DNA from: Hexactinellida sp. DTS-2022
Taxonomy: Eukaryota; Porifera; Hexactinellida
Reading direction: 5' to 3'
DNA length: 64,000 nucleotides
Assembly (NCBI GenBank): GCA_028753945.1
Contig: JAPNXP010000009.1
Coordinates: 6,076,001-6,140,000 of the forward strand
The translations under genes and the position numbers were made by a program. Below are positions 3-36,621 of the stretch, piece by piece. The notes beneath the pieces were generated by a model, which saw only the letters and a list, made by a program, of their open reading frames with translations, ran no database searches and was not told the origin of the DNA. The first letter of the stretch is position 1, and each line of letters starts with the position of its first letter.

Positions 3-3000
3 ACAACATCCCTACGGGTACAACTGACTCTAGAAAATCTCAATGAAATTAAGAGACTCTCCTCTTTAGCCACTGCTGTCAGGAATACATTCCTTTCCAT
101 CACAAAGCACGCTATACAGGATACGAATTATAATTCCATAGTCGCTATTCCTCCTATCAGAGCTCTCCAGGTCTCTACTTTTGTGAATGATATGACTTCG
201 CTTCAACTCGTTAGCTTCAATTTGGATCTTTCGAACAACACTTTAACTGTTTTCTTTGACGAGACAGTAAACGCTTCAAGTCTCATGGTTGTAGAGCTCA
301 CATTTTTTGGAACAGACAACCTCACCCTTGGGCCTGAATACACCCTCACAGGCGGCGTTTCTAATTCTTCTGATGGAACTGTTTTGGTAGTGGATTTAAC
401 TAGGAATGACCTCAATGCTCTCAAAGAAGATTTGCAATATTATATTAGTGACACAACAACCTTCATCTACCCTACTAGTAGCTTCATCAGAGACATGAGC
501 GGGAACTTTCTCTCACAGCCGCTTGTTCCTATAGCTATTTCCATTTTTAATCCTGACATTATTCCTCCCAGAATTGAGTCTGCTTTTCTAGACATGAACC
601 AGGGCATTTTAAGTCTGTCCTATGACGAGGTTGTTCTCGGATCTTCTCTGAATGTGGAAGAAGTGTTCATACAGGCTCGAATAGGCGCTACAGATAATGA
701 ACAGCGATTGCGTCTCAACCGAACCCTCGGATCAGCTGATCAGACGGGGACTACCGATGGAGTAGATTCTGAGATATCCATTCGACTCGGGGCTAACGAC
801 TTGAACGAGTTGAAGAGACTCACACAGATCGCTATGAGTCTCAACAGTACCTATTTATCTTTCTCCCAGTTCTCTATTGTAGACACGAATGGAAATAAAG
901 TTGTCTCTCGCCCCTACAATAATCCATTACAAATTAGTGACCTCGTATTTGATATAACTCGTCCTAGATTATTATCATTCGATATCGACATGAACTCCGG
1001 ATACCTCGATCTAACTTTTGACGAGACAGTTAACGTGAGTAGTCTAGTTCACACGGAAATAACATTACAAGGAACCGAATCGTTTATTCAATCAATGACA
1101 CACTCCATTCTACTGAGTGGTGGTACTACGCTATCTCTGTTAGATTCGACTCAAATACAGTTCGTTATAACAACTGAAGATTTGAACCAAATCATGTTTT
1201 TGCAGTTGCTTGCTACCTCAATTAATGACACTTATATCGCAATTACGAATCACACTATTAGAGATATGAATAATAACTATGTCTGGGCGGTCTCCACTTC
1301 TTCTGCCATTCCTGTAACAGATTTCAAACCGGATACAACAAGGCCTAATTTAAACCAATTCACACTGGACATGAATCTAGGCATAATTACAATCTGGTTC
1401 TCTGAGACTGTTAATGCTAGTTCTTTGTACATCTCTTCCCTCACGCTACAGGATTACACGACTGCTGCTTCTAACTACACACTCACAAACAGCACCTCCT
1501 CCCAAACAGACTCGACCACCCTTCTAGTTTATCTATCATTCACAGACCTTAATGCTATCAAAAGCAATCGATATATTGTTACTTCACGTACCGATACTTT
1601 CCTTAGCTTTCCACATACACTCGTGTTGGATATGATTGGGAATTGGGTAAATCCTAGGCTAAATGGGTTTGCTATCCAAGCTGCTAACTTCACTCGAGAT
1701 TTCATCCGGCCCCTTCTCGAGGACTTCTCTCTTGACATGAACACTGGAGTATTAGTGCTCACCTTTTCAGAGACGATTGACACCAGAAACTTTAACGTAA
1801 CACAAATAACTCTACAGAGCATCCAGATCTATAATTCCTCTCTTACAGAGCAAACTTATACTTTGAGAAATACTTCTATCCTGGGAGAGGATTATTACAT
1901 TATTCCTATACAGCTAGGATATGAAGATATCAACAGTGTCAAGCAGCTCTCAGAACTCGCTACCTCAGTCTATACCACTTATGTTGACTTCCCCTGGACA
2001 GCATTTACGGATATCGCTGGCAACCAAGTACAACCAATTTACTCAACTGATGCTAAGAGGGTGTTTAGTTTTATCGAGGACAATACCAGACCCCATCTGC
2101 TATATGGTAGCCTGGATATGCACGATAGTCTCATTACGCTGACATTTTCTGAGATGGTTAACCAGAGTTCTCTGTTACTCAATCACCTAACTCTTTACAG
2201 CAGTACATTTGCTCCCTCTCAGTCCCATTCTCTAACTTCTGTCTACTCTTTTAACTCTACTTACGAGGGTACGATATCGCTGACTGCTAGCCTATCTCTG
2301 GAAGATACGAATCGTATTAAGATGCTCACCAGTCTCGCTACCGATGTTTCCAATACTTATCTTTCTATTACAGAGCTTCTGATTCGAGATATGAACGGTA
2401 ATAATGTGTATAATATTTCGCAGTCTAACTCTATTCGGGTAATAAACTACATACAAGATCTCCATAGGCCGATACTAGAGCATTTTAGCCTAGATCTCAC
2501 CACGGATATCCTATCTCTATCCTTCTCAGAGACTGTTAATCGCACCTCGTTTGACGTCACAGGCCTCGCCATACTGAACCCATTCACTAACTCCAGCAGG
2601 CGTTTGGTATCTGGTACAGTACTAACTCAGTGGTACAGCCCTATACTGGATGTACTCCTCCACAATCAGGACTTGAACTACATTAAAATATACACAGACC
2701 TGGCAACTAATTATCATAACACCTTTTTATCAGCTCGTCCTACTACTGTATTGGACATGAATTGGAATTATTTGACGGAAATTACTGATTACCACCCATT
2801 GAATGTTACAAACTTTACCCAAGACTTGGTCCATCCAAATCTAACTTATTTTACTCTTGACTTGAACACTGCTCAGCTCAATCTCACCTTTACTGAATCA
2901 ATTAATGTATCTTCTCTGTACGTCTCTCAGATTTCAATACAGAACGCGGTATCTGCTGTCGCCAGAGACACAGTTAATCTTACTCCCGGTGGCTCCTTCT

Positions 3001-6000
3001 CCACTAGTCCTAATTGGCCTTACCTCACAATAGAAATCGGTGACATTGATCTCAACCGCATTAAATTCCTCTCACAACTAGCTACCATTGCGAACAACAC
3101 TTATCTTAGAATCACTCAGTTTACTATACAAGATATGAATGGAAATATGATCAATCAGATTCCTAATGGATTTGCTTATCTGGTCGCTACCTACATTGCT
3201 GACACAATAAATCCTGATCTAACAAGCTTCTCTCTCGACATGAACACAGGGACATTGTACCTAACTTTCTCTGAGACTGTCAACACCAGTTCTCTTACAA
3301 TAGACTATATATCCCTACTGGATAGGCCCACCAGCCTCTCTCCTCTGCTGCTCAGTCTCTCTGGCGGTATCGTTCTAACGCTTATAGATAGCACTAGTAT
3401 TGATGTGAGACTCACCAAGTCGAATCTTGACACCCTAAAACGAGAGAGAGGACTGGCTGATAGTATTAACACGACTTATCTAGCCATACAATACGCAGCT
3501 CTCTTTGACATGAATACAAACTTTCTTAATTATATTTCCTTGGAAAACGCTATCAAGGCATCTGACTTTATTCCCGATAAAACCCGTCCTACGTTGCTAT
3601 CATACAATTTGGATATGGACAGTGCACTTCTCACCCTCTCTTTCTCTGAGACTGTTGAGAGTGACTCCTTGCTTGTGGATCAGCTGACTCTGCAGAACGC
3701 TCCCACAGCCTCGCGAACTGTCTCTCTTTCTAACTCTTCTTCTCACGTTAGGGTCGACTCAACTGTTATCTATGTCAATATTTCATTTGAAGATTTGAAT
3801 CGAATCAAACTTGAACGTTCAATTGCAAGTGTCGCGAATGGTACAAACGTATTCTTGACATTTTCAAACCACACAATTCAGGATATGAATGGCAATTATG
3901 TGATAGGAAAGTCAGATTCAGAAGGTGTTCTGGTCACTGAGTTTATTGAAGACACAACTCCCCCGTTTATCCTCTTATTCACGTTAGACATGAACATAGG
4001 CGTATTCAACATTACTTTTAATGAAGTGGTTGATGCTCTAACTTACAACGTAACTGCTATTTCTTTACAGCAGAACTATTCTCTATCAAACGACTCAGAG
4101 TATTATCGTATAACAACTCAATTCCTGTTATCAGGAGATGGACTCTTTATTTCCCAGCTTATCCAGAAGGTAGACTTAGATCGTATTAAGACTCTGCGGA
4201 ATCTCGCCATCTCACTTGATACTACCTATCTTTCAATTAGCTCATATCTTGTACAGGATATGAATAAGAACCGAGTGTCTCCTATACTCAGTAATACTGC
4301 CTTGCTCGCTACCGAATTTATTACTGACCAGACTAGACCAATATTGCAGGACTCTACACTTAATATGAATCTCGGACTTTTGACCCTAACCTTTGATGAA
4401 TCAATGGACACCATAGCCAGTCTGGATGTGTCACAGATTGGTTTTTCTTCTATCCAGAACGGTTCCATCTTGTTTTATCTCTCCTCCCAGAATGATACCT
4501 ACTCCATATCTCCTGATGTTCCTACTGTCGAGATAGCAATAGGAGACTCTGACCTCAATGAGCTCAAGAGGTTACAACCACTAGCCTCCAGCAAATACTA
4601 CACTTACATATCTCTATCGGGTACAACTATAAAAGACACTTCAAACAACTTCAATAGACCAGTACAGAGTGTACAGATCTCTGTTTTCTATGACGACACG
4701 ATTCAACCTCAACTTGTTAATTTTACGATAGACTTAACTCTCGAATTACTAACGCTATTCTTCTCTGAAACGGTCATTAGCAGTTCCTTGAGATTTAATC
4801 AAATCACATTCGTTTCACAGTCTCTCCTCCCGATATACAGTCCCGTATACTTTAGACTTCTCTCCCCAGACGGCACTCGTGTTGTCGTTGAGTTAGATGG
4901 GTTTGATCTTAATAACCTCAAGCTACTAACGGGCCTCCTCACTATGCGGAATAACACACTCACCTCAGTCACGGGCATTTTCATTCAAGATATGAATTCC
5001 AACTACAATCTCCCCATTCCAATATCAACTCCTCTAGTCGCCGCAGCCTTCCGGCCTGACACGGTAGCGCCCCAACTCCTATCTTATTTGCTAGATATGG
5101 ATCTATTGATTCTGCAGTTGACATTCGATGAGCCCGTACTATCGGGAACACTGAACATAAGTCTGTTTACAATACTCCCTTACCCAAATGCCCCGGCTTC
5201 CGAGAGCTACTCCCTGACTCCTTACAGCTACTCACAATCTCATAATGGATTGGTTCTTCAAGTTGTGATTGGTCCTAATGATGCCAACCAGTTAAAGTAC
5301 ATGTACCATTTGGCACAAGGAATATATTCGACCTATCTCTCATTCCCTGAGGAGGCTATCTTGGACATGAACATGAACCCAGTGCTGCCAATACGTCCTG
5401 CTAACGCGTCTAATCTTGTTACTTTCATAAAAGATACTTCTAGTCCTATACTTCAATATTTCAGTTTAGATTTGAGTGTGGAAATTGTACGGTTAACTTT
5501 TGATGAGACAATCAATGTAGCTCGGACTGTTTTTAGTGGAATTTCCTTCCAACAATGTTCGACGTGTATTGTATCCTCTCAGATCGTGCGTCTCACCTCA
5601 GGGTTTGTCCTTGGAGATAACTCTACAGTATTGATACTTATGCTCTCGAAAGAAGATCTACATTCCATTAAACTCAAGACGCAGCTAGCAACAGATGTCA
5701 ACAATACTTACATTCATCTGCTTCCTTCTTCTGTTCAGGACATGGCTCTATCTACGAACCAGATTTCTGAAACCACACAGAAAGTCTCGAGTTTCACACC
5801 GGATTCTGTCCGTCCAATTCTCACTCAATTTCTTATCGATATAAATCGTGAAGAACTGACCTTAGTTTTTGACGAGCCTGTAAACTCCTTATCACTGAAC
5901 ATTTCAGCAATTACATTCCTGAGTAACTCCAGTCTCTACTCTCACTCTTCCTACACGCTAACTGGCGGCCTGACTACTTCTGCCAATGGACTCTCTATTG

Positions 6001-9000
6001 TGATTCAGTTAACTCCGTTTGACGTTAATCAGATTAAACTGTTGGAGGATCTTCTAGTCAGCTCTGAAAGCACTTTCTTGAGTATAACTAGACACCTCAT
6101 TTGGGATATGAATAGGAATCAGCCTGTTGAAATTGCAACTACTGACCCATTACCTACTTCATTCTTCCTCAACGATACTCTATCTCCTTACCTGATTCGA
6201 TTTGATCTTGATATGAATACAGGACATATTGTTATGTATTTCCAGGTAGGTTTTCAGATTTACAGTACAGGTGTTTTATTTTTGATTATTTATAATGTAT
6301 TTCTAATAGGAAATAATCGATATAAGTTCTGTCAACATATCTTGCTTGATCCTTCAGAGCTCTTTTGCTAGCTCCAACAGATATAGGCTAACTGGCGGAG
6401 ATTTGATTTCTCCGCTTGCTCGCTCCTTTCCCAATCCAGCCAACTCGTATCCAGAAGTGGGGAGCTACGCTGTCCCCGAAGTAGATATCGATTACGGTAG
6501 GTTTGCTGCACTTGATAATACAGCTATTATTGTTCGCTTAATATTGGATGACCTGAATAAGATTAAGGAGCGACTAATCGCACACTCCCCCTCTACTTCC
6601 TGGTTGGCAGTAGATCAGTGCGTGTTAAAGGACCAAAATGGCCAGTATATAATACCGCTTGTGAATGGCATCAATACTCAACAGGTTACAAACTACACCG
6701 AAGATAGGACTCATCCTAGATTGCTGAATTTCACTCTCGATATGAACACTGGACTTATTGTAATGTTCTTCTCAGAGACAATAAATCTAGCCACGCTTAT
6801 GCCCTCACAGCTAACTCTACAATCTACTGCTAACATATCTACAAACTCCTCTGAGAGTTATACCTTGGCACACACTGATGCGTTGGGCAGTGGATACGCT
6901 ACCTATCTGGCTCTGCAGATTAACATTCTAGATTTGGACCAAATTAAGTTTCTGAGAGTTCTAGCCACCAACATCGACAACACTTATTTATCCATTACAA
7001 GAATGACAATTGACGATACTGAAACAAACTTTGTCATTAGCATATCCATATACAATGCGCTGAGAGCGTCAAACTATACCAGCGATTTAACAAGACCAAA
7101 CTTGCTATCATTTGATTTCGACATGAACACTGGTGTATTCACATTAACTTTCGATGAGACTGTTTCAGCAGTTACCTTTACCCCCACTAGTCTCGTGTTA
7201 CAGAATGATATATACGTTCCTACAACATATTACAGTCTGACTGGAGGCTATTTCGCCGCTGTAGACTCTACATTTATTACTCTCTCTGTCAGTGAGGATG
7301 ATTTGAATGAGATAAAGAAAATTAGAAATATTGCCATTAATCGATACACTACAAATTTATTGTTCAACAGCTCACTTATCGATGACACAGATGGTAACAA
7401 GGTTAATCCTACCACACTCACAGTTACCGTATACACACCTGATACTACTGATCCTTATCTCCGCTCATTCGCGATTAATCTCACTTCTGAGACGATACAC
7501 TTTGTATTTTCTGAAACTATAGACGCTTACACTTTCGACTCTTCTCACCTGACTCTTCAAGATGCTCCCTCACTTCCTAGGAAGATTACTCTCTCTCCCA
7601 TTTCCACTCTGATACAGCCAGAGGACTCTACTCAGCTGGTCATGTTGATAGAAACCTCAGCACTTAATTACTTTAAAATATATCGAGACTTCTTCACCAA
7701 TATGAATAACTCTTTTATAAGTTTCACTTACTACCTGGTTACGGACATGAGTGGGAACAGAATTGTCAGTGGAGACGGTATAAAAGCATCTTCTTTTTAT
7801 GGAGACTACGTACGACCTGAATTAAACTTCTTCAATCTCGATCTTACTAGAGAGACGTTAGTTCTCACCTTCAGTGAGACTGTGGACTATGCAACTCTCT
7901 GGGTTAACGAACTGACTCTGCAACAAGCTAATGACCATGTCGGCTCCTCTGTAGAGGACTGGTCACTCACTGGAGGAGATATCTCCCCTGTCTACAGCAC
8001 TATACTTACAATTCAATTGACCGAATACGATCTTAACAACATCAAGCGTATTGTTGAGTTGGCTACCTCTTCAAGTACAACTTATCTACGACTCACATGG
8101 AGATTCATTCGCGACATGAATAACAACTCGATTGTTGCTATTCCTGAAAATGAGGGTTTGCGTGTGACTCAATTCACAAGTGATACGATTCGTCCTTATC
8201 TTGTCAGCTACACTGTTGATTTAACGCGGAACTTTATCAACCTTACATTCAGCGAGACTATTTCTCAGCCAAGCTTCCAAGTGCGGTATTTGACACTCCA
8301 GTATTCTGAAACTTCTGACTTTTATTTTATCACCTTAACCTCTTACGCGGCTGTCTCCGAATTCAACGCTACATTCCTAACATTTTATTTTGAGCACAAC
8401 GACCTTAACGTCTTGAACGCAATAACACAAGTGGCTACTTCTCCGAATGACACATTTCTGTCACACACGTCAACTCTAATCTCTGATATGTCTGGAAATA
8501 CCATACTACCAATTCTGCAGTCACATGCTCTGCAAGTTGAAAATTTTATCCCCGACTTTGTCAGTCCTTTTCTCATCAGCTTTGATTTCGATCTCAATCT
8601 AGGTACCATCACTCTCTCTTTCTCAGAGACGTTGAATGCTGCTCCTACAAACTTCTCATCTCTCATATTCCAGTCCTTCTCTAACCTCACATTTGCTAAT
8701 CTAATGGCTATTAATGTCTCCACGCTACGATTGGCCACTGGCAACGTTACTTACATAGCACTCGATCCACCTAGAGTGATCGCCTCTTGCCACTTCTCGC
8801 CTAGTGATAAGCTCCACATCGAAATTAGCGCTGAAGATTTAGATTTATTCAAATCTGATCCAAATCTCTGTGACAGTGAAACGAATTGTTTTCTTACCTT
8901 TGATACGTCTGCATTTGTTGATAGTGCTGGTAACAAAGTTATTTCGATTCCTAGAGATGGCGCTCGCCAAGTTACTCAGTTCATTGTTGATACTGGTTCT

Positions 9001-15000: not shown

Positions 15001-18000
15001 ACTTACCTCTCCCATTCTTCCCATCTCATTAGGGATATGAATTCTAATTATGTTGAACCAACTTCAAGTACAGATGCTCTACAGGTATCTCTATTTACGC
15101 CTGACCGCATACCACCTGAATTAGAATACTTTGACTTGGATTTGGACAGAGAAGTACTTACTTTGGAATTCAGTGAGGTTGTAAACGCTTCTTCCTTGAA
15201 CTGCCAAGGACTTTCTCTATCAAACAAAGCTGCATTCCCCACGAATAGCATCTCGCTCTACAACTGTTCAGTAAGACTATTCAATGATTATATTCTCTAT
15301 GTCGATTTGGGTCTTGATTTCCTGAATGAAATCAAACTAATAACCGATTTAGCAACCTCCACGTCTGATACATATATGTATTTCTCTGAGACCGTCGTTA
15401 CGGACATGAATGACAATTTTGTTATCGCTATATCAGTCAATCAATCTCAGCCAGTTAGGTATTTTACTGAAGATATAACCTCGCCGAGTTTGCTCAGATT
15501 TGAATTGGATATGGACTCTGGGTTTGTGAGTCTATTCTTTTCAGAAAGTATGAATGTTTATTCTCTAGACCCGACTCAGATTATTCTCTCATCGTCTCGA
15601 TTTCTCAGCAATACAGACTCTGTCTACCAGCTTTCTGGCGGCTCAGTTAATCTTTATAACAGCCCTGTCATTAGCTTTAACATCACGAAATATGATCTTG
15701 ATAGAATCAAACTACTCAGGAATCTCGCTACTTCATCCCTCAACACGTACATGCTATTTAATATAAACTCTACAGTTGACCCATTCGCCTTGGATATGAA
15801 CTTAAATAAGATAAATCCTATCTCCAATGGATCTGGGTTGCAGGTTTCTGCTTTTACTGAGGACTCTACCCCTCCAGATATCGTACATATCACTCTCGAT
15901 CTAAACTCCCCTCGACTCACAATCTCTTTTACGGAGCCTATAGATTCTCTCACGATACAGATTAACAATGGGAATATTAATTTCTTTAATCATATAACTG
16001 ATATATTGTCTCCACCACAGTACACACTTATTAACGGATATTCTAACAGCCACGATGGTCTCGTTATTGCTATCAATATCTCTTTACAGGATTTCAATCA
16101 ATTGAATTATATTTGGACAGTTGCATTTAGTCGAACTTCTACTTTCCTATACTTCCCTGATTTGGTAAGCGACATGAATGGAAATTTAATTACAACACTC
16201 TTTAATGGTGGTAATTATACCCGTCTTATTTATACATTTATACCTGATGGCAATAACCCTTGGGTTGTTAGTTTTGATCTTGATATGAATTACGGTTCAC
16301 TAGACGTTACATTTAATGAAGTAGTTACAGATATTGTACCTCTACATTTCGCTCTTCTGAATAGTGCAAATCAGTCATACAATCTCCTCACTTCAACTAT
16401 TGTGTCTGGTCCTGCAATCGACGGTCCTGGCCACCCACCAGAAATCACAATCCTGATCTCAACTCGGGATCTTAACGAAATCAAGGCACTTCGTAACCTC
16501 GCGACTTTTAATGTCACTACATTCCTTTCAGTCACTAGTCAAGCTGCGAAAGATATAGCTGGTAATCCTATCCTGCCTAGTGGCTCCTCTCCGACCCCAG
16601 TGTCACTATTCACGCCTGATCAGACCAGCCATCAGCTGATTAGTTTCACATTTAACTTAAACAATGGAGTTTTGGCATTGACCTTTGACGAAACTATTTC
16701 TGAATCTTCCACACAACACACTGAGATCTCTTTTCTCAGCTCAGCTCAGGCTCCTGAGGCCTCCTACACGCTACAGTTTCCCACAGACAGCTTAATTTCC
16801 TCTGACGGAACTACAAAGCTATATATTGACATATCAGAAAATGATCTTAATGAGATTAAAGTTATTCCAACTCTTCTAACTGAACTATCCAATTCATTCA
16901 TTTCGTTAACTGACACTTTTATCCTCGATACGAATTCCAACCCACTCAATACATCGAACCTACCTCTCAATATCTCTCAGTTTCTTCCTGACATCACTAG
17001 ACCGACACTCACATCATTTGATCTCGACATGAATACCAACATCCTCACTCTCTATTTCTCGGAGTCCGTCAATGTATCTTCTCTAAACATATCGCAAATA
17101 ACATTACAGTCCTACTATCACATTGTTAATCAGTCCATGGATAAGTACACTCTACAATCTGCGGACACGTCCAGTATCGATGGAATTATCGTTGTTATAA
17201 ACTTGAGTTATAAAGATATTAACGAAATTAAAAAACGGACTCTTATAGCTACGCGATCTGCAAACACTTACATAACTATAACTGCCCTAACTATATCTGA
17301 CATGTCTGCGTTGCAAGTTAATCCGATATCCGATGGGAATGCCCAGCCAGTTAACGTGTTTATTGCAGACTCTACTCGTCCTTCTATGGTAGATTTTCAG
17401 TTTGATTTTGATGATGGATTATTATCACTCACGTTTGACGAAACCATTGACATCAGTTCATTTGACCCTTCAGAAGTAACTTTTTATAACTCCATGTATT
17501 CTTACACGCTTCAACTAGGTGATCTCTATAATGTCACTGAAGATTCTACTTCTTTCACTTTCTCCCTTCAAAAGTTTGATATTGACAATTTAAAGCTACG
17601 AAGTACACTTTTGTATGCCCATGCAACAACCAATCTCCAGCTGGGGAATGGCACTGTTGTGGATCTTTCTGACGCTAGACTGGAATCTAACTCTGTGTTG
17701 AGAACCAACATTAGCTTTATTCCAGATACTACAAGCCCCCAACTCATTGCGTAAGTTGTACATGTTTAATTGTTTATATTATCATTACTTTTACTTTGCC
17801 GACTACTATGTAGTTGGCCAGTATTGTTCTTTATATTTATATCTTTAACTCTTTGTTTCTTTCTTCAGATTCACAGCTGATTCTAACATCAGTGTTGTGT
17901 ATCTCAACTTTGATGAGCCGGTTGATGTATCTTCATTGGATACTCTTCAGATAACTCTGCAATCAACAGCAAACACTTCTCTATCCGGATCTTCCTATAT

Positions 18001-24000: not shown

Positions 24001-27000
24001 CAACACACTAACTGTAACAGAAATAACTTTACAGAATAGTTTGATACGTAACGTCTCTTATTCAAATTCCTACCATACTCTCTCTAACCTCACTGCATCT
24101 CCCTCCCCGGACGGACTGGTAGTATACCTCTACTTCTCAGTGCAGGATCTTGATGAGATCAAGCGGAAGTATCAGCTTGCATTATCCCAGGATTCCACAT
24201 ATATTTCCATTACTTCAAACACAATTCTAGATATTTTCTTTAACTTTAACTCTCCCATCACTACTCGAGTGTCGACTTTGATATCTGATGACACAAGCCC
24301 GATTCTCATTTTCTTTTCACTTGATCTGACCTTAGAAGAAATTACTCTCAGCTTTTCTGAAGTTATTGACGCTAGTACCTTGGTGGTACAGGAAATAACT
24401 TTATTCAGCAATTATACTCAAACGCCTGCTACCTCATCATACTCTCTGACTACGTCATCACTTCTCTACGGGCCGGGTCTCCCCGGATATGATTCCACGC
24501 GAGTTGTGATAACTCTCGGGAGCTACGACCTGAACATAATTAAGAATATGACTGGATTAGCTATCTCTACGAACACTACGTATATTGGATTGACTAGTTC
24601 CGCTATAAGTGACATGTCAGGTAACCCAGTGGAACCAATACTTCCCCCTAGTGCTCTTTTCCCAGCTAACAGCTTTAAAAAAGACACTACTCATCCCCTA
24701 CTTATCCAGTTCACATTTGACCTTAACACCGGAGTAATAATGCTTAGTTTCAACGAGATTATGCAGGCAGATACACTGAACGAAACTGAGGTAGTCCTCA
24801 TAAGCCATCCAGGTTCTACTTATACATACTACAGACTCACTGGTTATCAGTATAAGACTCAATCTAATGAAGTTGAATTGGCAATTCACATCACAAAACA
24901 GGACCTTGACCAGATCAAAGCCCTGCCTCAACTCGCTACGAGCCACGCGACCACCTATCTTATATTCAGCAGCAACCTAATTTCTGATATGAACAATAAT
25001 CCTATTGTAGCAATCCCGGCCGTTACAGCCAAGAATACCTCTATGTTCCATCAAGACAGTACTCCACCTGAGCTCCTTAGCTATACTGTAGACCTGACAG
25101 AGGAGCTGCTTGTGCTGAGCTTTAGCGAAACTGTCCAGACGGATACTCTCGTTATTCCAGAGCTCACATTCTCCTCACTCAACACTTCTACCACTTTATA
25201 CATTCTAACTCGAGGACAGTTTAACTTTACATACGATACTGTAGTTAGAATCGAACTAGATACAGATGATCTTAACGATATCAAGAAATTACCTGGCCTG
25301 TTAACAAGTCAGTTGAATACCTATCTATCTTTCTCCAGTGGGTTAATATCTGATTCTAGCGCTAATCCCGTGGTTGCCATTCCTATCTCTAGAGCCCAAA
25401 TAGTCGGACTGTTTACTGCGGATTCTATATCCCCAGTACTCTACTCTTTCAGGTTAGATATGAACTTTGGACTTCTCAGCTTAGTATTCTCAGAAACTAT
25501 CAACGTGACATCTCTCCAAATCAATCAGCTGACTCTGGTTGATGCAAGTGGCTCCGGAGAGAATTATACTCTTACTCAATCCACTGTTGCAGTTTCAACT
25601 GATGACCCTCTTCTGTTTCTACAAATCGGTATTGAGGATTTGAACGCACTGAAAAAGAGCATGTACCTCACCCACGCTACATTCTTCACCTTTTTAACTA
25701 TCTCACGCGAATTTATTCGCGATATGAACAAAAATATGGTTGCATCCCTGTCACAGTTAGAAGCTACCAATGTCACTGGAGATATAACAAATCCTACGCT
25801 GCTAAACTATACACTGAATCTAAACAATGGTTACCTGACTCTCTCATTCTCCGAGACTACGATAGGAGGATTGATGATGCCAAGTATGTTCATCATACAG
25901 AGCCAGAGTAACATTGTGAATGCGAGTCATGTGCAGCTATCAGCTGATAGTCCCCATTCGCTGCATAGAGACCCTGTGCAGGTTATTATTATTCAAATTG
26001 AAGATTTGAACGAAATAAAAAGATTTACAGACTTGGCAACAGGCCGAGATGATACTTATTTATCTGTGAGTGATCTAGGTATTCAGGATTATCAAGGCAA
26101 CAATCTTACTCGAGTTTCTCCATTTGCCGCAAAGAATGCTTATTCTTACATCAGAGATTCCACTCAACCACAGCTGGACAATTTCCGGTTAGATTTGGAC
26201 GAAGAGACCCTGACACTTTATTTCAGTGAGACTGTCAATGCTACTTCTATTCAAGTTGATAAAATTACTTTACAGAGTGGCATGACAGCAAATGCCATTC
26301 AGAATTACACTCTCATTGACAGCCTTGTAATCACAGAAGATTTTCACATTATAACCATCCGACTCAGTTTCCAAGATCTAAATGAGATCAAGGTCCGGAG
26401 ACAGTTAGCTTCCTCTGCTAACGGCTCTAGCACTTTCATTTCATTTCCTCCTTTCCTCTCGGATGAACAGGGCAATCTCATTCTGGCTATACCACGCTCC
26501 TCAGCTAAGCGAGTACAGAATATAACGCTAGATAAAACATCTCCTCGTCTCGATAACTTCACATTTGACATGGATACAGGCTACCTTTCTCTCACATTCA
26601 ATGAGGCTGTTGATTCCACAACCCTCGAGCCCACTACATTCCTTATTCAGAACTCAGATGCATCTCTATCGCATCGTGTTATTAGCGCATTTGTATATCA
26701 AGTTGATGGTTATATACTCTCTACACTGCTTAGTATTCCTGATCTGGATGAGCTCAAACGGATTCGAGGCTTAGCTGATAGTGAGACTGACACGTTTATC
26801 GTACTAACGCCAAACTCTGTGAGAGATTTGAATGGTAACAAGCTAATATTCCCGGTGCCGTTACAAGCAGCGCAGCTGTTGGAAGATGAAACAAGACCGA
26901 ATTTAATCAGTTTGAATCTCAACTTAACTTCCAATAAACTTATTCTAGAGTTTGATGAGACGGTTGAAGCAAGCAGTCTCCTCATTCAAGAAATCGCCTT

Positions 27001-30000
27001 ACAAAACAGTTATTCACTTCCTATCAACCAAACTAACTCTCCAACTTACCGTGAGCTAGAGTCTGTAGGTTCAAGCCAAACAGACAGCACAAAATTAATT
27101 ATCTATCTGGACAGAGCTGATACAGACTACTTGAAGCTGTACTCAAGCTTTGCTACTAATCTCACTAACACTTTCATTTCATTTCAAAATACCACTTTGG
27201 TGGATATGAACGGAAATTCTGTTGTAGAAAGACTTTCCAGCAACGCTTTTCAAGTAACAACATTTACTGATGATGAAGTGCGGCCTACTCTGTTGGCTTA
27301 TCAACTTAACCTCACATCTGGTACAATATACTTATCATTCAGTGAGGTCATCCTGCCTGCTACCATTGATCTTATCTCTCTGACTATCTCTAATCGGTAT
27401 AATCAATCTGTTACTCTAACTGAGGGATTGTTCTCTATGAGTCGCAGCGATAAAGTTACCATTTCGCTTAATTATTTTGATCTCAGTCAGCTGAAGAATA
27501 TTTCCACACTCGCTATTTCTGCAAATACTTCGCTGCTTTCTTTCCCAAGTTCCTTCCTTTACGATACATTTTCTAATCCTATCTACCCTGTATCTCTCTT
27601 AATGCCAGATATATACACACCTGATAGGGTACAACCCATACTATTAGACTTCGATTTTGACCTGAATCTAGGGCTATTAATGTTGAATTTCAGTGAGTTT
27701 GTGAACCCAAAGAGTCTGATAATACCCAACTTAGTTCTCCAGCCGAATGCATCGCTCTATTTTAACACCTATTACGCTCTCACGAACTCTTCTTTTACCA
27801 ACAGTTACGATGGAGACACTGTTATAGTCTGGATTGGGACTGATGATTTGAATGAAATTAAGAAACTTGTTAATTTGGCTAGTTCGGCAAGTAACACTTT
27901 TCTATCTGTTGCTCATGGAAGTATTGTGGATTTAAATAACAATCCATTGGAGCTAGTGTCACCCATGTCTGCTCTTCTTGTACGGGAGTTTACTGAAGAC
28001 GAGACTGAACCTGTTTTCGTATCTTTTGATTTAGACCTCACCTCTGAAACTTTGACTATAACTTTTTCTGAGACTGTTAATACCTCTACATTTAACATTT
28101 CAGATATTCTATTACACTCTTCGCCTTCTAATTACCTCGTATCTTATCGTCTGAGTTTGGAATCAGTGCTCTCTTCTGGGAAAATGGATTCAATCGTATA
28201 TACTGTTGAACTAAGTCTCCTGGACCTGAATGAAATAAAGCGGTTAATCGGACTTGCATACTCACAGAATTCCACATTCTTAACTTTAACGAGATTCGCC
28301 GTTATAGATATGGCTGGTAACTCTCTTAGTGCTGTTAGCGGAGAGAAAGTTCTAAATTTCATCCCAGATAATACCAATCCTTTATTGCTTAATTTCAATG
28401 TTGATATGAACTCTGGAGTTTTAACTCTCTTTTTCAGTGAAACAGTCAATGCTTCTACTCTCCTAATACAAAGTTTAACCTTACAGAATGCTGAAAATGC
28501 TTCCTATCCAACTCTTCTCCTTTCTACTCGTAGTAGTTCTAGCTCAGATAACAGCGATGTTCTTACCGTATCGCTAAGCTTGAGTGAGCTCAACGCTCTT
28601 AAAGCGGCTGTATACATGTACAACTTTGCCAACGATTCCTTCTTATTAGCCGCGAATGCAGCCGTATTGGATATGAACGGTAACCCTCTCGTTCCGATAC
28701 TCAACACATATGCCAAGATGGCTTCCAATTTCACCCAAGACATAACTAGACCTGAACTTTTGAACTTCACTGTTAACCTTGATTCTGGGGAAATATTTTT
28801 TGATTTTGACGAGACCATACTAATTTCTAGCATAATTCGCTCCCGAATACGCATTGTGTGTTCTTCTAATGGCTCCCCAGTTTACAATCTCACAGGCGGG
28901 GATATTACAGACTTGTATGCTGACGATTTTACTCTCCAGCTCACAAAGAGTGATCTTGACAGTATCAAATTAATTGAGCTGTGTTGGACAGATGTGAACA
29001 ATACTTACCTCAAATTAGACTCGAGTGCCTTAACAGATACTTCCCCAAGTGCGAACGCAATTCTAACAATTACAATTAAATCATCAGATCCACCAATTGA
29101 GATTGCGAGACCGTATTTGTTAACTTTCTCGGTCAACATGACCAGTGGGGTTCTGACTCTCCTATTTAACGAGCCAATAAGGCCTAATTCCTTCATGTAC
29201 AACCTATTTAGATTACAAAATAGTCAATTCAATTACACATCTTTCTACACACTAACAACTGGGTCTACAACGCTTATTAATGGCTTACAAGCATATGTAT
29301 TTATACAATTCAATGATTTGAATTATATCAAAGCAAGAGATAGTCTCTTCATTTCACGAAATACTTCGTATCTCTATTTGGGTCCTAACGCTGTGGTTGA
29401 CATGGCTTACAACCCTTCCGTGTATACTGCTCCTCCAATCCACGCTGCACAGTTCTACATGGACATTATCCAGCCTTATCTGGTCAGCTACTCAGCTGAT
29501 TTAAATAGCGGTTTGTTAAATCTCACTTTTTCAGAAACGGTGAATGTATCTTCGCTGGATGTTAATCTTATTGTTCTTCAAGAGTACCCCTCAGTTGACC
29601 CAGCTGATGAGCACTCTTTCCATCGTCTCACTCTGCCTACATTTGCTGTGAGCAGCACACCAGCTGATGACAGTAGATTCGTTACAGTTTCATTATCTGT
29701 TGATGACCTTAACGAGATAAAACGTAAGGAGATTGGGAGGAACAATCGTACATTATGGTTAGTGATTGATGAAAATGCGCTTTTTGATATGAATAAGATA
29801 CCAGTGTTACCTCTATTTAACGGTTCTTCCACTCGGCCAGTTGATGAATATAAATCTGATAGCACAAGACCGATGCTAATTACAAGTTATATCGACTTGA
29901 ACGCTGGAATGATAACACTCTCCTTTTCTGAAACTGTTCGTCTATCTACAATTAATGTAACACAATTGACCCTTCAATCTTCTCGTTCAAATCCCACACA

Positions 30001-33000
30001 GAGCTTCACTCTTACAAACTTCAGTTTAACAAACGATGCAGATTCTACCATGCTAGATATTGCCATATCAGTGGATGGTCTCAATCGAATTAAGTTTCTT
30101 TCAGAACTTGCTGTTGACCTCAACTCAACGTTCCTATCCCTTACAGCTTTATTTATAACTGATATGTTCGGAAATCGCATTGTCTCTATCCCCGCTACTG
30201 GTGCTAAGCAGATTACTGGATTCACTCAAGATGTAATCTCTCCAGTTATTGAATACTTTGATTTGGATTTGAATGTTGGAAATTTAACAATTGAGTTTTC
30301 AGAGACTGTGAATGCCTCTTCACTTGACGTCACTAAGATTAGACTACAGAATTCATTGCTACCTTCCGACCCTGGCTTCGTATTCTACTCACTCACAGCT
30401 TACCCCCCTTACCCTGTTGGTTCGAGATCCTTTGATATTGATGGCACTACGTTGATTGTGTCCATTGGCAGTCAAGATCTCAATCAGATAAAGAAAATCC
30501 GTTTACTAGCCACGAATACCTCCAATACTTACTTCTCCTATACGCCTGAGTTAATACTCGATATGAATGACAATTTAGCTTATGCCAGGACGCTACCTGT
30601 CAGATTTTTCACTGAGGATAAGACTAGTCCTGAACTCCGTAGCTACGGCCTCGACCTAAATCTAGGTTTGCTTAATATGACTTTCTCAGAAACAGTTAAG
30701 GTCAATGACACACTTGACTTGACTCAGATTCGCATACAATCTACTCGAGCTGGTATGAGCAACCCGCTCACTTACCAGAGGCTAGATGGTGTCTTCCGTA
30801 TTGAGCAGAACTCAACGAGCCTCCTATTCAACCGCACTGAATATATTCAGTACCCTTTCCCACAAGGGTCTCTCTCAGGGTTCGATCCCATACGATCCTA
30901 TTCTATATCTGAAGACGGAACTGTTGTGTCTGTACACCTCGGCTTCATCGATCTAAACGCTGTCAAATACAAATCCATTTTGGCTACTCGAATGAATGAA
31001 ACATACCTTGCCATAACTAACTTGACAATATTGGATTTGAATGACAACAATGTCATAGCTATTTCATCCAGTGACGCAACACGCGCTTCCTACTTCATCC
31101 CCGACGCAACATCCCCCATTCTCCTCCGCTACGACCTCGATTTAGATCTTGATCTTCTCTCGCTTACCTTTGATGAGTTCGTAGAGAGCAGTTCTCTCAA
31201 TGTACAGTATATCGCAATACAAAGTGCTACGCTATCCGACCCAGCTTACCACACCTCGCCGCGTGCTCTCACACCCGGCACACAGCAGTCGCACACTGTA
31301 AATGATAACGGCCATGTCATCGTCATACAGCTGGGACCTGAAGATAGAAACGAGATTAAACGTAGACAGGGTCTCGCGGTTAATGATAGCACCACCTACT
31401 TAGTGGCTGGTACCTCTGCGGTACTCGATATGACTGGCAATAATCTGACTAAGATAAGAGACGGGTCTGCATTGCCAGTCTCTGTATTCACAGTTGATGC
31501 AACTACACCCAAACTAACTAATTTCTCAATAGATATGAACTTCGGCCGGTTTGTACTGACCTTCACTGAAACTATTCGTGCTTCCACACTGAAGATAACA
31601 TCAATATCTCTACAGGATTATAAGCTCGCTCTATCAAGCCATACACTAACTGATGGTACCTCTTCTGTATCAGACGGTACTGAGGTAACAGTCACTTTCT
31701 CAATTGATGATTTAAATACGTTGAAGAGGCTGATTATATGCCGCCTGGCCACCCAATGCTATATAACATACGAGATTGATACTATTCGCGATATGGCGAA
31801 CAATTCGGTGGAGGCTAGACCCGATTCAGAGAGCTTTGCTGTCAGTCAATTCAAACCCGATGTCACCATGCCCCGCTTGGTGATGTTTACTGTGAATATG
31901 ACCGAGGAAATTGCAGTGCTGACTTTCAGTGAGACTGTTAATGCTACCAGTCTCAATTACACTGCTTTCACTCTGCAAGACTTTTTCGACCCTTCCACTG
32001 CCTACACTCTGACTGGAGGCGTTAACAAGCAGAATGACTACAGTACTATCGTGGTGCTCAGCTTCTCATTAGATGATCTAAACCTTATTAAGAACAACAC
32101 AGACCTCTTCACCTCGCGGCCCAATGGTTGGCTTACGGTTACTAAGTATGCGATTAGAGATATGGCTTTTGATGCTAACTACGTTATGCCGATAAGTAGT
32201 TCGATTAGCTTTGGAGATGGTCTCGTTGCTGAGGTGTTTACCCCCGACATGAAGCGACCCGAGTTGTCCTACTTTGACCTTGATATGAATAATCACATGT
32301 TGCATCTCTTTTTCACGGAGACAATGTACGCCAACAGCTTGTACTTCAACCTATTAACCATACAAAACAAGAAGTTACAGAATATCACCGAATTTCACTC
32401 TCTCTCGATCCGAAACCAACTCCTTACACCTAACTTTCCTGATCTTACCATTCAGCTCGATCAGTATGACACTGATATTATCAAGGCTTTCACAAAACTG
32501 GCTACAAACAACAACAACACTTTCCTAAGTCTCACTGAAGACACAATTGATGATATGAATGACAATAAAATAGTAGAGATTCCCTTCACTAATGCCCTGA
32601 AAGTTCGCTTCTTCTTTCCAGATAGAATGAATCCGTCTTTGCTAAGTTTTAACTTGGATATGAATACAGCTATTCTATACCTAACATTCAGCGAAGCTGT
32701 TAATGCCGCCTCGCTCAACGTAAGTGACATCCGACTCCAAGGCTCACCAAGTTCTATTGGCGAGTATCACACACTAACTCCGGGGCAGGCACCTAACTAC
32801 ACACTAACTAACAGCCAAAATACACCTTTTATCACAGTAGAGATCGGAACTAGCGATATGAATGCCATAAGAAAGTTGTACAATCTATGTACCTCAAGCA
32901 GCACCACCTATTTGTCTCTCACTACAAGGGCTATTATGGATATGATTGGTAACCATGTTAAAGAGATCTCTACCAACAACGCAAATATAGTTACAACATT

Positions 33001-35473
33001 CACACCCGACAGTATAAACCCCAAGCTTGTATCTTATGACATAAACCTCAACAGTGAGCTGATACTGCTAACCTTTGACGAGACTATCAATGTTGCTTCC
33101 TTTGACGTGACACAGATGAACGTACAGTCTAACCAGTACACTAACTTGATCTCCTTAGTCTCATACTACAGACTATCTGGGGGGAACTACTCCTATGAAA
33201 ACTCCACTGTTCTTATTCTACAATTTGACTTGAACGATCTTAACGCACTCAAGGGCATGACTTCCCTGATGACAGATAAATCCAGTACCTATCTCACTTT
33301 CTCCCATCTGCTGATTGCTGATATGAATGGGAATAGGATTGAAGAGATTATTAACGGCAGGGGTAAACAAGTTCGTATCTTCACAAGGGACAATATGTCT
33401 CCTCAAGTACACTCGTTCCTGCTAGACATGGACAGTGGAGTTCTCTCGCTGACATTCAGAGAGACTGTGAATGGTCTGTCATTGTACGTTCAGTCGCTAA
33501 CTCTACAGAACTCCCAGAACAGCTCTGCTCGCCTCTCTCACACTCTCACCAGCTCGAGTATCGGTATTGACTTATCCTTTGATACAGTTGTGAGTGTACG
33601 AATTAGTAAGACAGAGCTGGACACCATTAAGAGTGTCGATAATTTCGCGATAAACTCTGGCACCACCTGGCTGGTATGGGACCATTTCCTTATCAGGGAT
33701 ATGAACGATAATTCTGTTGTACCTCGCTATGACGGCGGAGCACTTATGGTGGGCATATTCTTCCCAGATATTACTCCTCCCTTCTTGATTCGGTTCAGTT
33801 TGAACTTCATTACGGAAGAGTTTACATTTGAGTTTAACGAACCGATAGCTTCATCCCTTGTGCAGATTGGCCAGATCACTCTACAGGACGGGTTAACTGC
33901 AGTGGACAGCTATACACTCACAAATGGAACCTGGGTTTCTTATAATGAGAGCAAAGTATTCGTTGTTGTTGTCAGCCCAGTAGACTGGTCCTATGTCAAA
34001 CGACACAATTCACTGGCCACATCTATCTATGACACTTTTATTGCATTCACCCCACTCGCCTTCTTTGATAAGGCCGCTGTTCCGAACACGATTCTGCCAC
34101 TTGTCGACACTGCCAATGCCACCCAGGCTTCCGCATTCCTGTACTATCCGGCTCCAGTATTCGCCTCCGTCCGTCCTACCGCGGGTCGCGCTATCGGCGG
34201 AACCAGACTGACAATCGTAGGAAACAACTTCGGCCCATTACCCGGGTACCCTGGGCAACGTGAGCTCGAGGTTCACATCGCTGGCAGACTCGCCCTCAAC
34301 ACTACAGTCTCACGGAACAATACAGAGGCTGTGGCGTACACGCCGGCTGCGGCTGCTTACACTGTTGGTACACCGGTCTCTCTTCGCTTGACTATTGATC
34401 AGAGCGCGCTACTGGTTAATGTACCCGGCGCATTCACATACCTATCTCCACCTGTCTTCACTCGGATATTCCCTATTGTCGGCACGAGGTATGGCAAGAC
34501 TCTAGTGACCGTGTTTGGAGAGAACTTTGGTCCTTCAACTGCATCGCTAGAAGGCCCTACGGTATCCGTAACGATTAGCGGGAGAGATTGCTCGAATTTA
34601 ACTGTTATTGACAACTATACACTGACCTGTGTTACTCCCTCTCTCGGCCCATACTCGCATGACATTAACATTACTGTGGATGGGGTAACTACTACCGCAC
34701 TGTCTCCGTTCCGGTCTGTCAGCCCTGCTGTGGTTCTCTCCGTTACCCCCGAGACAACCTACCGAGCCCGCTACACACAGGTTAATATCACTGGACGGAA
34801 CTTCGGACCGACAACCGTGTCCCAGACCGCTCCAGCTCCGGTTGTTGTGTTCCACCAGTCAGAGGACAACTCTACTCTCAGCTGTTCAAACGTAGCTGTT
34901 CTCGTTAACGACACTCTCCTCACTTGCCTTGTGCCGCCCGGACTCGGATTCTCCACTATTAGCGTATCTGTAGACGGATCCATCTCTCTTATCAATCTCA
35001 ATGTCACGTTTCTGCACTACGATGATCCGGGTAGTTTCTCCTTCGCAAGCGAGCAGTTCTTTGTGGGAGAGCTCCTTGTCGCGGGTAATGTCACTGTCAT
35101 ACGTAACGACTACAGGAAGTACGCCTCCCCTGCCTACGTCACCGTACAGACATACGACTATACTGCGATAGACAGTGCTCACTACATCAACAGAACCACA
35201 ACCTACCTCATGGATTATAACGTGTTCTCTCTGAGGTTTGAGGTGACAATAACCGCGCGGGACTACCAGCCCTTGAGACTGAGAATGGGTATTGAGGATG
35301 ACGTCACATTGTATGTCCGTATAGACACAGTGACACCACTGTTTGGCACTAGCTATGTTACGAGGGGCGAAACTAGCCTCACTATAAAAGCTATCTGTGA
35401 AATCCTGAGCAGTTTTTGTGTGGCAGACCTGACTCAGTCTGGACTGCAGTATTTGAGGATTGAAGATACCTAG
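3..35473 (+). CDS. Giant tandem-repeat protein with IPT/TIG and Calx-beta-like C-terminus (5' partial)
   Basis: The gene is open from the first bases, so the start codon and any signal peptide lie upstream. I join three exons: 3-6245, 6310-17750 and 17869-35473, giving 11,762 residues in the window. Intron 1 (6246-6309, phase 0) and intron 2 (17751-17868, phase 2) are GT-AG. Both joins restore the repeat consensus: MYFQ joins EIIDISS, and SPQLIA joins FTADSN. The protein has 89 complete units of about 126 residues, then three IPT/TIG domains and a Calx-beta-like domain. Each unit reads roughly LxSFxLDMNxGxLxLTFSE, TVNxSSL, ITLQ, YTLTGG, DLNxIKxLxxLATS, NTYLSI, IxDMNGNxV, DxTxP. Sequons of the type NxS/T are very common and cysteine is rare, which fits a secreted or surface glycoprotein. 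No membrane segment is visible near the end. The units resemble bacterial-Ig-like (Big_5 or SWM type) repeats from memory. The role is unknown; adhesion or matrix is an inference. Confidence 0.9.
203..34149 (+). repeat. Array of 89 protein-level repeat units (about 126 aa each)
   Basis: I counted units by the conserved strand motif [hydrophobic]xxF x[LF][DN][ML]N followed by LTF[SD]E. There are 17 before intron 1 (the last is split by it), 29 wholly between the introns, one split by intron 2, and 42 after it. A further partial unit precedes position 203. Other fixed landmarks in each unit are DLNxIK near the middle and DMNGN near the end. Conservation is in the protein only: neighbouring units differ widely in codons, so this is an old expansion and not a recent DNA satellite. 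Variant units recur at intervals. Those with FDEP or FNEP in place of FSET lie near 5870, 12841, 17906, 23230, 29162 and 33834. A variant with a TSWL or TWLV-like segment near the DMNGN end occurs near 6595, 18500, 29750 and 33665. Confidence 0.85.
34141..35013 (+). other. Three IPT/TIG domains at the end of the giant protein
   Basis: Three immunoglobulin-like IPT/TIG domains follow the last repeat unit. Each opens with the family pattern P-x-V-x-x-[IV]-x-P-x-x-G, continues with a G-x-x-x-x-[IV]-x-[IV]-x-G core, and has the G[NER]NFGP motif. They start at about 34147, 34445 and 34721. Domains 2 and 3 each carry a cysteine pair (SGRDCSN with TLTCVTP; SCSN with LLTCLVP), as in plexin and fibrocystin TIG domains. 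Such domains occur in extracellular adhesion and matrix proteins. This is the clearest evidence that the giant protein is extracellular. Confidence 0.85.
35020..35340 (+). other. Calx-beta-like domain, C-terminal end of the giant protein
   Basis: After the third TIG domain the protein reads DDPGSFSFASEQFFVGE, then VTVIRND and YVTVQTYDYTAID with SAHYI. This matches the Calx-beta order of PGxhxFxxxxhxVxE, hxVxRxxG and VxYxTxDGTAxxGxDY, though the acidic calcium ligands are only partly kept. Calx-beta domains bind calcium in Na/Ca exchangers, integrin beta-4, FRAS/FREM proteins and sponge aggregation factor components. About 50 unassigned residues with two cysteines follow, ending at the stop codon at 35471. 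I see no membrane anchor or GPI signal. Confidence 0.6.
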
Positions 35474-36003: not shown

Positions 36004-36369
36004 ATGGCTAGCAAACATGGCGGTAACAAGGACGGGATTCAGACGCTTAGGAACGCAGAGAGAGACGCACAGTCGAAGATAAAACTAGCTCGCGAGAAGA
36101 AAGCGAGACGGTTGAAAGAGGCTAGGGATGAAGCTCAGAGAGAAATTGAGGACTATCGTCACGAAAGACAGCGAGAGTTTGAGTTTAAGAACCAAGAGGC
36201 GACAGGACACGGGGACTCGTATACCAAACAAATAGAAGATAAGAAGTCTATTGAGATTGCTGAGATTCATGTACAAGTTAAGAAAAATAGGGATCAGGTT
36301 ATTCAGATTATTCTAGATCAGGTGTACAAGATTTCACCTGAGCTGCACCAGAACTATCAAACACCTTAG
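36004..36369 (+). CDS. ATP6V1G: V-type proton ATPase subunit G
   Basis: This is a 121-residue single-exon gene; the animal family is usually about 118 residues. Subunit G forms part of the peripheral stalk with subunit E, linking the catalytic V1 head to the membrane Vo sector of the proton pump of endosomes, lysosomes and plasma membrane. The N-terminus (GIQTLRNAERDAQSKIKLAR) is the family signature that contacts subunit E. It is followed by a long charged helix rich in Arg, Lys and Glu, ending in the usual weakly conserved tail. I chose the ATG at 36004 because the family motif begins about 10 residues in. The gene sits 530 bp after the giant gene and 252 bp before CFAP57, on the same strand. 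Confidence 0.95.
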   Translation: MASKHGGNKDGIQTLRNAERDAQSKIKLAREKKARRLKEARDEAQREIEDYRHERQREFEFKNQEATGHGDSYTKQIEDKKSIEIAEIHVQVKKNRDQVIQIILDQVYKISPELHQNYQTP

Positions 36370-36621
36370 CTTTTTAACTTACATGAGAAGACAGCTATCC
36401 TATTTTATTCTGTTTGATTAGTATAGTGCTTTTTTGCTTGTTAACTAGTGGATCTTGTAAATATATATTTCTAAGCATTCCGTGTGGAGAAATATCTTCT
36501 AATGAGATTATATCATTGTACTGAGGGAGTTATTCATTGTTTGAATCTACAAATGGGTTGATACATTTACACCAGTTTTTCTAAATTAATAATCTAATTG
36601 AATTTGTATAAGGACACTAGG

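What the first reader, a model, noticed from the sequence alone, without database searches (positions are those of the whole stretch)
3..35473. A secreted-type repeat protein of more than 11,700 residues
The visible sequence alone encodes 11,762 residues and the N-terminus is still missing. It has 89 complete units sharing the FSETVN, DLNxIK and DMNGN landmarks, then TIG and Calx-beta-like domains. The length and the combination of a bacterial-Ig-like array with metazoan surface modules are unusual. I cannot name a described protein with this layout.
Basis: partly seen in the sequence, partly recalled or inferred. Interest (0 to 1): 0.88.

Follow-up and report, generated by a model that had tools for sequence, protein, structure and literature searches.

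The report
Giant secreted repeat proteins of sponges
The window holds most of an animal gene, almost certainly of a sponge, for a secreted, string-like protein of about 15,650 amino acids built from 120 similar beads; a sister gene has an unbroken reading frame of 49,073 amino acids, and the order of the beads looks conserved between very different sponges.

Summary
The gene starts 12,954 bases before the window. A 14-exon model reads 15,652 residues: signal peptide, 120 contiguous units of about 125 residues, three TIG domains, a Calx-beta-like stretch and a conserved tail. One unit is predicted with high confidence as an Ig-like sandwich closest to S-layer protein SbsC.

It is one of at least three giant loci in this genome. 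C12 has an intron-free frame of 49,073 codons. A 49,014-residue protein from one 147-kbp exon is in print for the glass sponge Aphrocallistes vastus, in one sentence without family or function; ours is probably its orthologue (sequence not available to me).

New, as far as I could search: unit order is conserved. Thirty-six consecutive units of Dysidea (demosponge) and 55 of an unnamed relative share one register with C18, and C12 carries a 23-unit super-repeat shared by relatives. I read these proteins as secreted filaments of fixed length and spacing, working like extracellular rulers or scaffolds. Where is unknown; the choanocyte flagellar vane is a bold, untested candidate.

The parts
3..6245 (+). 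Coding part of exon 12 (the exon starts at -2736, upstream of the window)
   Evidence: Open frame and spliced model
6246..6309 (+). Intron (GTAGGT...TCTAATAG, 64 bases)
   Evidence: Best of 4 candidates by unit-profile score, 95.8 against 80.5 bits
6310..17750 (+). Exon 13
   Evidence: Open frame, spliced model
17751..17868 (+). Intron (GTAAGT...TTCTTCAG, 118 bases)
   Evidence: Best of 4 candidates, 188.0 against 172.9 bits
17869..35473 (+). Exon 14, the last exon, with the stop codon at 35471-35473
   Evidence: Open frame of 5,874 codons from 17849; seven relatives of 5,633-5,892 aa match its first 2,500 residues at 54-91% identity and keep units 78/79-120 in register
3..34141 (+). Array of about 125-residue Ig-like units (89 whole units here; 120 in the gene)
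   Evidence: Unit profile; AlphaFold model of one unit, pLDDT 96.3
34154..35011 (+). Three TIG (IPT) domains: 34154-34441, 34451-34699, 34730-35011
   Evidence: Pfam PF01833 (places converted to window coordinates; 8.9e-28, 3 stretches)
35021..35203 (+). Calx-beta-like stretch (matched core)
   Evidence: Pfam PF03160 E 0.022, below its cut-off here; PF03160 precomputed for P0144, P0175, P0183, P0191, P0217, P0242
35204..35470 (+). Conserved C-terminal tail, no membrane segment noticed by eye (no predictor run)
   Evidence: Aligns to the last residues with P0121 (Oopsacas), P0122 and P0113 (Ephydatia)

Best explanation
I think it works as an extracellular filament of fixed length: the signal peptide sends it out (inferred from sequence), the beads fold one after another into a thin rod of roughly 0.5 micrometre (inferred, using a recalled 4-5 nm per bead), each bead position carries its own conserved surface at which partners bind (inferred from conserved order), and the C-terminal cap anchors it to matrix or other strings (inferred). 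The C12 paralogue, about 395 beads (inferred from its length) with a 23-bead super-repeat, would be the longer ruler of the set. Shown here: gene anatomy, predicted fold of one bead, paralogous loci, order conservation, super-repeat. Not shown: expression in this species, location, partners, mechanics.
Against: No RNA or protein data for this species. Mechanical or ruler function rests on architecture alone. Outside close relatives only about half or fewer of the single units find their own counterpart best (Dysidea 18 of 36, Ephydatia P0209 12 of 32, P0133 26 of 55): the register is a property of the whole run. The model of the C-terminal 568 residues was poor (pLDDT 57), so the cap is not structurally tested. 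C18 has no super-repeat. Dysidea P0165, Amphimedon P0208, Ephydatia P0120 and Oopsacas P0036 are not clearly in register with any array read here, and Ephydatia P0092 and P0093, Geodia P0046 and P0082 only ambiguously.
Confidence: 0.6

Rival explanations
1. It is a sponge cell-adhesion or self-recognition molecule in the manner of the aggregation factor (which, as I recall, also bears Calx-beta domains), and the array only holds the adhesive end away from the cell.
For: Secreted by sequence, many sequons, TIG and Calx-beta-like end conserved down to the last residues. Tail identity to the demosponges Dysidea P0183 and Ephydatia P0113 (0.44, 0.45) is slightly above their mean unit identity (0.40, 0.42).
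Against: One Calx-beta-like stretch, not a run of them, was found. Conserved unit order across species is the opposite of what a variable recognition array would show. The Wreath domain of aggregation factors (recalled) was not tested.
Confidence: 0.2
2. It forms the filaments of the choanocyte flagellar vane or of the mesh between collar microvilli, where strings of fixed length and node spacing are needed.
For: Vane filaments of a choanoflagellate are extracellular, about 3.5 nm thick, leave the flagellum for about 80 nm and then branch into a diamond mesh; the authors leave open what they are made of (PMC9671500, passages). A calcareous-sponge model uses vane widths of 0.3-0.7 micrometre (PMC7755389, passages). 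Twenty-three beads at a recalled 4-5 nm give about 92-115 nm (inference).
Against: No localisation or expression evidence. Bead length is recalled, not measured. [quoted passage not shown] Presence of the family in choanoflagellates was not shown: the organism of P0148 is not named in the listing.
Confidence: 0.12
3. The giant frames are assembly or annotation artefacts: collapsed, expanded or mis-joined repeats, or separate genes.
For: Giant repeats are a classic assembly problem; no RNA was at hand. The exact first junction of C18 is chosen among six open models by a small margin.
Against: Units are about 29-32% identical to one another with almost no DNA self-similarity, so reads would hardly be confused. 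Seven relatives keep the last exon's protein at 5,633-5,892 aa. A 49,014-aa single-exon protein is reported independently in A. vastus. 36,347 codons of C12 were read directly without a stop.
Confidence: 0.04
4. The genes are bacterial surface-protein genes, from a symbiont contig or from a recent transfer.
For: The fold and the weak profile hits are of the bacterial Ig-like kind, and relative P0017 matches Big_5 (5.8e-9).
Against: 14 exons with GT-AG introns, between genes read by eye as V-ATPase G and a sperm-tail PG-rich repeat protein and genes matched as WD40 and ClC channel; relatives in register in named demosponges. A scan of a collection with one genome for each of 84,980 prokaryote species gave no confirmed relative (8 pattern matches, none encoding one), though such a scan reaches only close relatives. 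An ancient transfer of the ancestral unit is not excluded.
Confidence: 0.04

Closest known systems
Avas.s016.g412.i1 of the glass sponge Aphrocallistes vastus (PMC10282587)
   Same: 49,014 aa, 5.34 MDa, one 147-kbp exon; the C12 frame here is 49,073 codons in 147,222 bases without an intron.
   Different: The window's own gene (C18) is a different, shorter paralogue.
Uncharacterized sponge proteins: Oopsacas LOD99_2401 (P0121), Ephydatia EMCRGX_G017625 and G017626 (P0113, P0209), Dysidea avara (P0183)
   Same: Same units in the same order; P0121, P0113 and P0183 also the same end.
   Different: Held as entries of 1,442-5,063 or fewer residues (1,765; 1,442; 4,063; 5,037), hypothetical or uncharacterized; G017625 and G017626 look like pieces of one gene (inference).
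Titin
   Same: Giant chain of Ig-like domains with higher-order super-repeats (recalled) that defines filament length (abstract starts).
   Different: Titin is intracellular, of I-set/FN3 domains with a kinase (recalled); here a signal peptide, a bacterial-type Ig fold and a TIG/Calx-beta-like end.
S-layer protein SbsC and Big_5-type bacterial Ig domains
   Different: Animal gene; the Big_5 profile finds nothing in this genome (no candidate in the first look).
SwmB of Synechococcus and Ig-array adhesins of bacteria such as MpAFP (recalled)
   Same: Giant surface proteins made of tandem Ig-like units (recalled).
   Different: Bacterial; SWM_repeat was not among the 21 families matched at E<=1 by any of 50 units.

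Membership tests
Big_5 (PF13205) | Units reach the curated profile cut-off | tested here: not met
   5 of 50 units match at E<=1, best 0.077; own genome 0 matches. Relative P0017 does pass (37.1 bits, cut-off 23.6).
Bacterial-type Ig-like fold | Ig-like beta sandwich resembling solved bacterial Ig domains | tested here: met
SWM_repeat | Profile match of units | tested here: not met
   Not among the 21 families matched at E<=1 by any of 50 units; HMMER's filters drop most matches above about 0.1.
TIG/IPT-domain proteins (PF01833) | TIG domains over cut-off | tested here: met
   Three stretches, 8.9e-28, 96.6 bits against 20.9.
Calx-beta proteins (PF03160) | Calx-beta domain over cut-off | tested here: inconclusive
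   15.2 bits against 27 here, also below in P0121, P0122, P0113; PF03160 precomputed for 6 of 120 listed relatives including Dysidea P0183.
Sponge aggregation factor | Run of Calx-beta domains and Wreath domain (recalled) | tested here: inconclusive
   One Calx-beta-like stretch only; Wreath domain not tested.
Titin | Cytoplasmic I-set/FN3 chain with kinase (recalled) | tested here: not met
   Signal peptide by eye; no I-set, FN3 or kinase hit at E<=1 in the 6,264 of 11,762 window residues scanned.
A. vastus 49,014-aa protein (with the C12 paralogue) | Sequence orthology | not testable with these tools
   Its sequence is not held; size and single-exon structure agree.

The most novel reading that the evidence does not exclude
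Sponges inherited from their common ancestor a set of three giant extracellular ruler proteins whose bead order has been kept ever since. The 49,000-residue one, with its 23-bead (roughly 100 nm) super-repeat, sets the node spacing of the filaments in the choanocyte flagellar vane or collar mesh, an extracellular structure of unknown composition that sponges share with choanoflagellates.
Probability: 0.1. Interest if true: 0.93.

Novelty: new variant of a known kind. Interest (0 to 1): 0.78.

Why it matters
A 49,073-codon frame without an intron would be among the longest coding stretches known in an animal, longer than titin or PKZILLA-1 (sizes recalled). Tandem arrays often gain and lose copies (general knowledge), yet here runs of 36-55 beads share one register between sponge classes, which suggests that exact length and position matter. 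The family, filed as hypothetical proteins, gives sponge biologists testable candidates for large extracellular filaments.

Tried and rejected
Membrane anchor or cytoplasmic tail: none seen by eye in the tail, and three relatives end at the same place. P0020, a short relative of unnamed source, does end in a hydrophobic stretch (read by eye).

Fold of the C-terminal region: model pLDDT 57, so no fold search was made with it.

First register control used one pooled null, which strongly orthologous proteins contaminate (10 of 120 proteins over its 99% point, 1.2 expected). I replaced it by a per-protein derangement null: 62 of 720 tests at the floor of 1/201, 3.6 expected (proteins and arrays are not independent). 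The order test looks at a single offset per array, so it does not exclude a gain or loss of units outside the matched run.

A super-repeat in C18: best offset 73 at 7.6, while the shuffled maximum is 7.6 on average, so none.

Signal peptide of the C12 gene and the exon after its frame's end at 3526955 were not found in the pieces read, so the C12 and C4 gene models stay open.

Sponge, and more narrowly glass sponge, is an inference: 67-72% identity to Oopsacas against 45% to Ephydatia over the C-terminal part.

Full report
What is there. Reading 60 kb upstream shows that the array continues to about -12.9 kb and begins with MDRIIFCILLLICLCIPASAQ, a typical signal peptide by eye. The spliced model has 14 exons and 15,652 residues, 1.72 MDa, pI 4.3, 57 cysteines. 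It has 120 units from residue 23 to 15,209, spaced 117-162 residues (median 125) without a gap, and 89 of them lie wholly in the window. Six choices of the first intron gave open models; the one kept scores highest by a small margin (11,544.3 against 11,539.5), so the first junction is the weakest part of the model.

The end of the protein. After the array come three TIG domains (8.9e-28) and a Calx-beta-like stretch below its cut-off. The stretch after the last unit has 443 residues here. Of the 15 proteins that end with it (P0125-P0131, P0133, P0144, P0154, P0175, P0183, P0191, P0217, P0242), 13 have 439-445 residues there; P0130 has 270 and P0242 460. The tail aligns to the final residues with Oopsacas P0121, P0122 and Ephydatia P0113.

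Paralogues. A 623-residue probe finds the same units at C12:3526952-3645541 in an open frame of 49,073 codons, at C4:3196518-3229583 in one of 11,202 (with 3194405-3195751 just before it in another frame), and at C4:3118461-3120290. I read both ends of the C12 frame (stop at 3526955, frame open up to 3674176) and 36,347 codons of it directly: no stop, no N, 293 units after removing double counts (299 before). With the TIG/Calx-like end as probe, C18 is the only strong match; the other, on C5, is weak (5.8e-5).

Distribution. Searches found 198, 4 and 189 proteins at E<=0.001 (at most 120 shown of each, and only the candidates sharing most words were scored). The organisms named in the rows shown are all sponges: Geodia barretti, Oopsacas minuta, Ephydatia muelleri, Dysidea avara, Corticium candelabrum, Amphimedon queenslandica. 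Most hits come from unnamed contigs, so absence outside sponges is not shown. Seven relatives match residues 1-2,500 of the last exon at 54-91% identity and 97-100% coverage, with total lengths of 5,633-5,892 aa against 5,874.

Conserved order. Oopsacas P0121 aligns to C18 in one register at 72% over its length, the next registers giving about 31%. Of 26 long relatives chosen for a unit-by-unit test, seven have every unit (42-43 of 42-43) best matched by its C18 counterpart. Eleven more have one dominant register: Dysidea P0183 (36 units, 453 against 64 for the next diagonal), Ephydatia P0209 (32 units, 327 against 73), P0133 (55 units, 562 against 62), P0135, P0144, P0154, P0175, P0191, P0217, P0147 and P0132. 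In these, single units find their own counterpart best in about half of the cases or fewer (for example 18 of 36, 12 of 32, 26 of 55). P0242 is weak (97 against 61), and P0136, P0143, P0146, P0168, P0208, P0148 and P0134 are not in register with C18. With 199 derangements of unit order, the eleven exceed every shuffled value (for Dysidea 453 against at most 195, for P0209 327 against at most 92), and reversed order gives 53-89. Of the seven that miss C18, P0136, P0146 and P0168 fit the 13 units of C4 read here (261, 247 and 268 against at most 161, 135 and 124), P0143 (Corticium) fits C12 over 50 units (408 against at most 104), P0148 fits C12 (263 against at most 92) but the next diagonal is nearly as good (228), and P0208 does not stand out (92 against at most 93); P0134 was not followed further. 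Dysidea P0165, Ephydatia P0120 and Oopsacas P0036 also fit nothing clearly, which is unexpected for Oopsacas, a close relative. Geodia P0016 fits C12 (170 against at most 134; p 0.01 in the smaller test). Across all 237 testable proteins of 244, 103 have a best register more than twice the next: 70 to C18, 19 to C12 pieces, 14 to C4. In one search, 62 of 720 tests reach the floor where 3.6 are expected. Ephydatia P0209 and P0113 fit C18 units 81-112 and 114-120, and their gene names are consecutive, so they look like pieces of one gene. Mean in-register identity is 0.38-0.42 for the demosponges Dysidea and Ephydatia against 0.32 out of register. That demosponges and glass sponges parted more than 500 million years ago is recalled.

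Super-repeat. In C12, units resemble those 23, 46, 69, 92 and 115 positions away. The value at 23 is 29.2 against a maximum of 5.9 over 500 shuffles, and 120 of 293 units have their best match a multiple of 23 away where about 13 are expected. Mean identity at distance 23 is only slightly higher than at distance 7 (0.318 against 0.294), so the super-repeat is old. Eleven of twelve blocks read show it (25.3-41.0); the last, incomplete block does not (1.1). Of 120 long relatives, those assigned to C12 have 23 as their strongest period in 11 cases and 22 in 4; those assigned to C4 have 18 in 9 cases and other values in at least 5. Corticium P0143 and P0148 show 23; Dysidea P0136 and Ephydatia P0168 show 18. 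C18 shows none.

How it may work. A secreted chain of beads whose order is held constant, with a longer paralogue that repeats its surface every 23 beads, is what a length or spacing template would look like; titin is the intracellular example (abstract starts). With 4-5 nm per bead (recalled), C18 would span about 0.5-0.6 micrometre, C12 about 1.6-2 micrometres, and 23 beads about 92-115 nm. Where this is used is unknown. The vane of choanoflagellate flagella is made of extracellular filaments about 3.5 nm thick that branch into a mesh, of open composition (PMC9671500, passages), and glass sponges and demosponges are described as having vanes and fine-meshed collars (PMC7755389, passages). 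That fit is suggestive and untested.

What is known. The Aphrocallistes vastus genome paper states in one sentence that its largest protein has 49,014 residues from one 147-kbp exon (PMC10282587, section 5 read; the gene name occurs once in the main text). Passages of the Oopsacas genome paper for the six terms I searched do not mention giant proteins (PMC10280926). Passages of the tulip glass-sponge genome paper were seen for context only (PMC10232365). The listings of my ten paper searches (one search returned nothing) show no description of this family; bioRxiv and most subscription journals are not in that library. So the existence of such a giant in a glass sponge is known, while its family, unit fold, paralogues, conserved order and super-repeat are, as far as I could search, new.

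Noticed in passing
G000:C12:3526955-3674176 (-): Intron-free frame of 49,073 codons of the same units with a 23-unit super-repeat; its start exon and what follows the stop were not resolved. A frame read by eye as syntrophin-like lies just downstream at 3524892-3526433.
   Followed up: partly
G000:C4:3194066-3229646 (+) and C4:3118461-3120290 (+): Third giant array (open frame 11,202 codons) and a smaller piece about 74 kb away; several C4-type relatives show an 18-unit period.
   Followed up: partly
L002 (C7:2285365) and L001 (C5:1103086): Other giant frames of about 4,700 codons with many TIG domains; the C7 one also has G8 and CEMIP beta-helix domains, as in fibrocystin-like proteins (that name recalled). 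The unit probe did not hit them.
   Followed up: partly
P0020: Short relative (1,430 aa) that starts with a signal-like stretch and ends in a hydrophobic stretch (by eye), so membrane-anchored small members may exist.
   Followed up: no
P0177, P0184, P0241: Some relatives show much stronger internal periods (15, 4 and 19 units), perhaps recent expansions unlike the conserved arrays.
   Followed up: no
window 36004-41588 and upstream about -16 to -13 kb: Neighbours read by eye as V-ATPase subunit G and a CFAP57-like WD40 protein downstream, and a sperm-tail PG-rich repeat protein upstream (WD40 parts matched).
   Followed up: partly
window 54052-56583 (+), 51972-53210 (-), 63260-64000 (+): Voltage-gated chloride channel (1.8e-78), NHL-repeat protein, amino-acid transporter.
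   Followed up: partly
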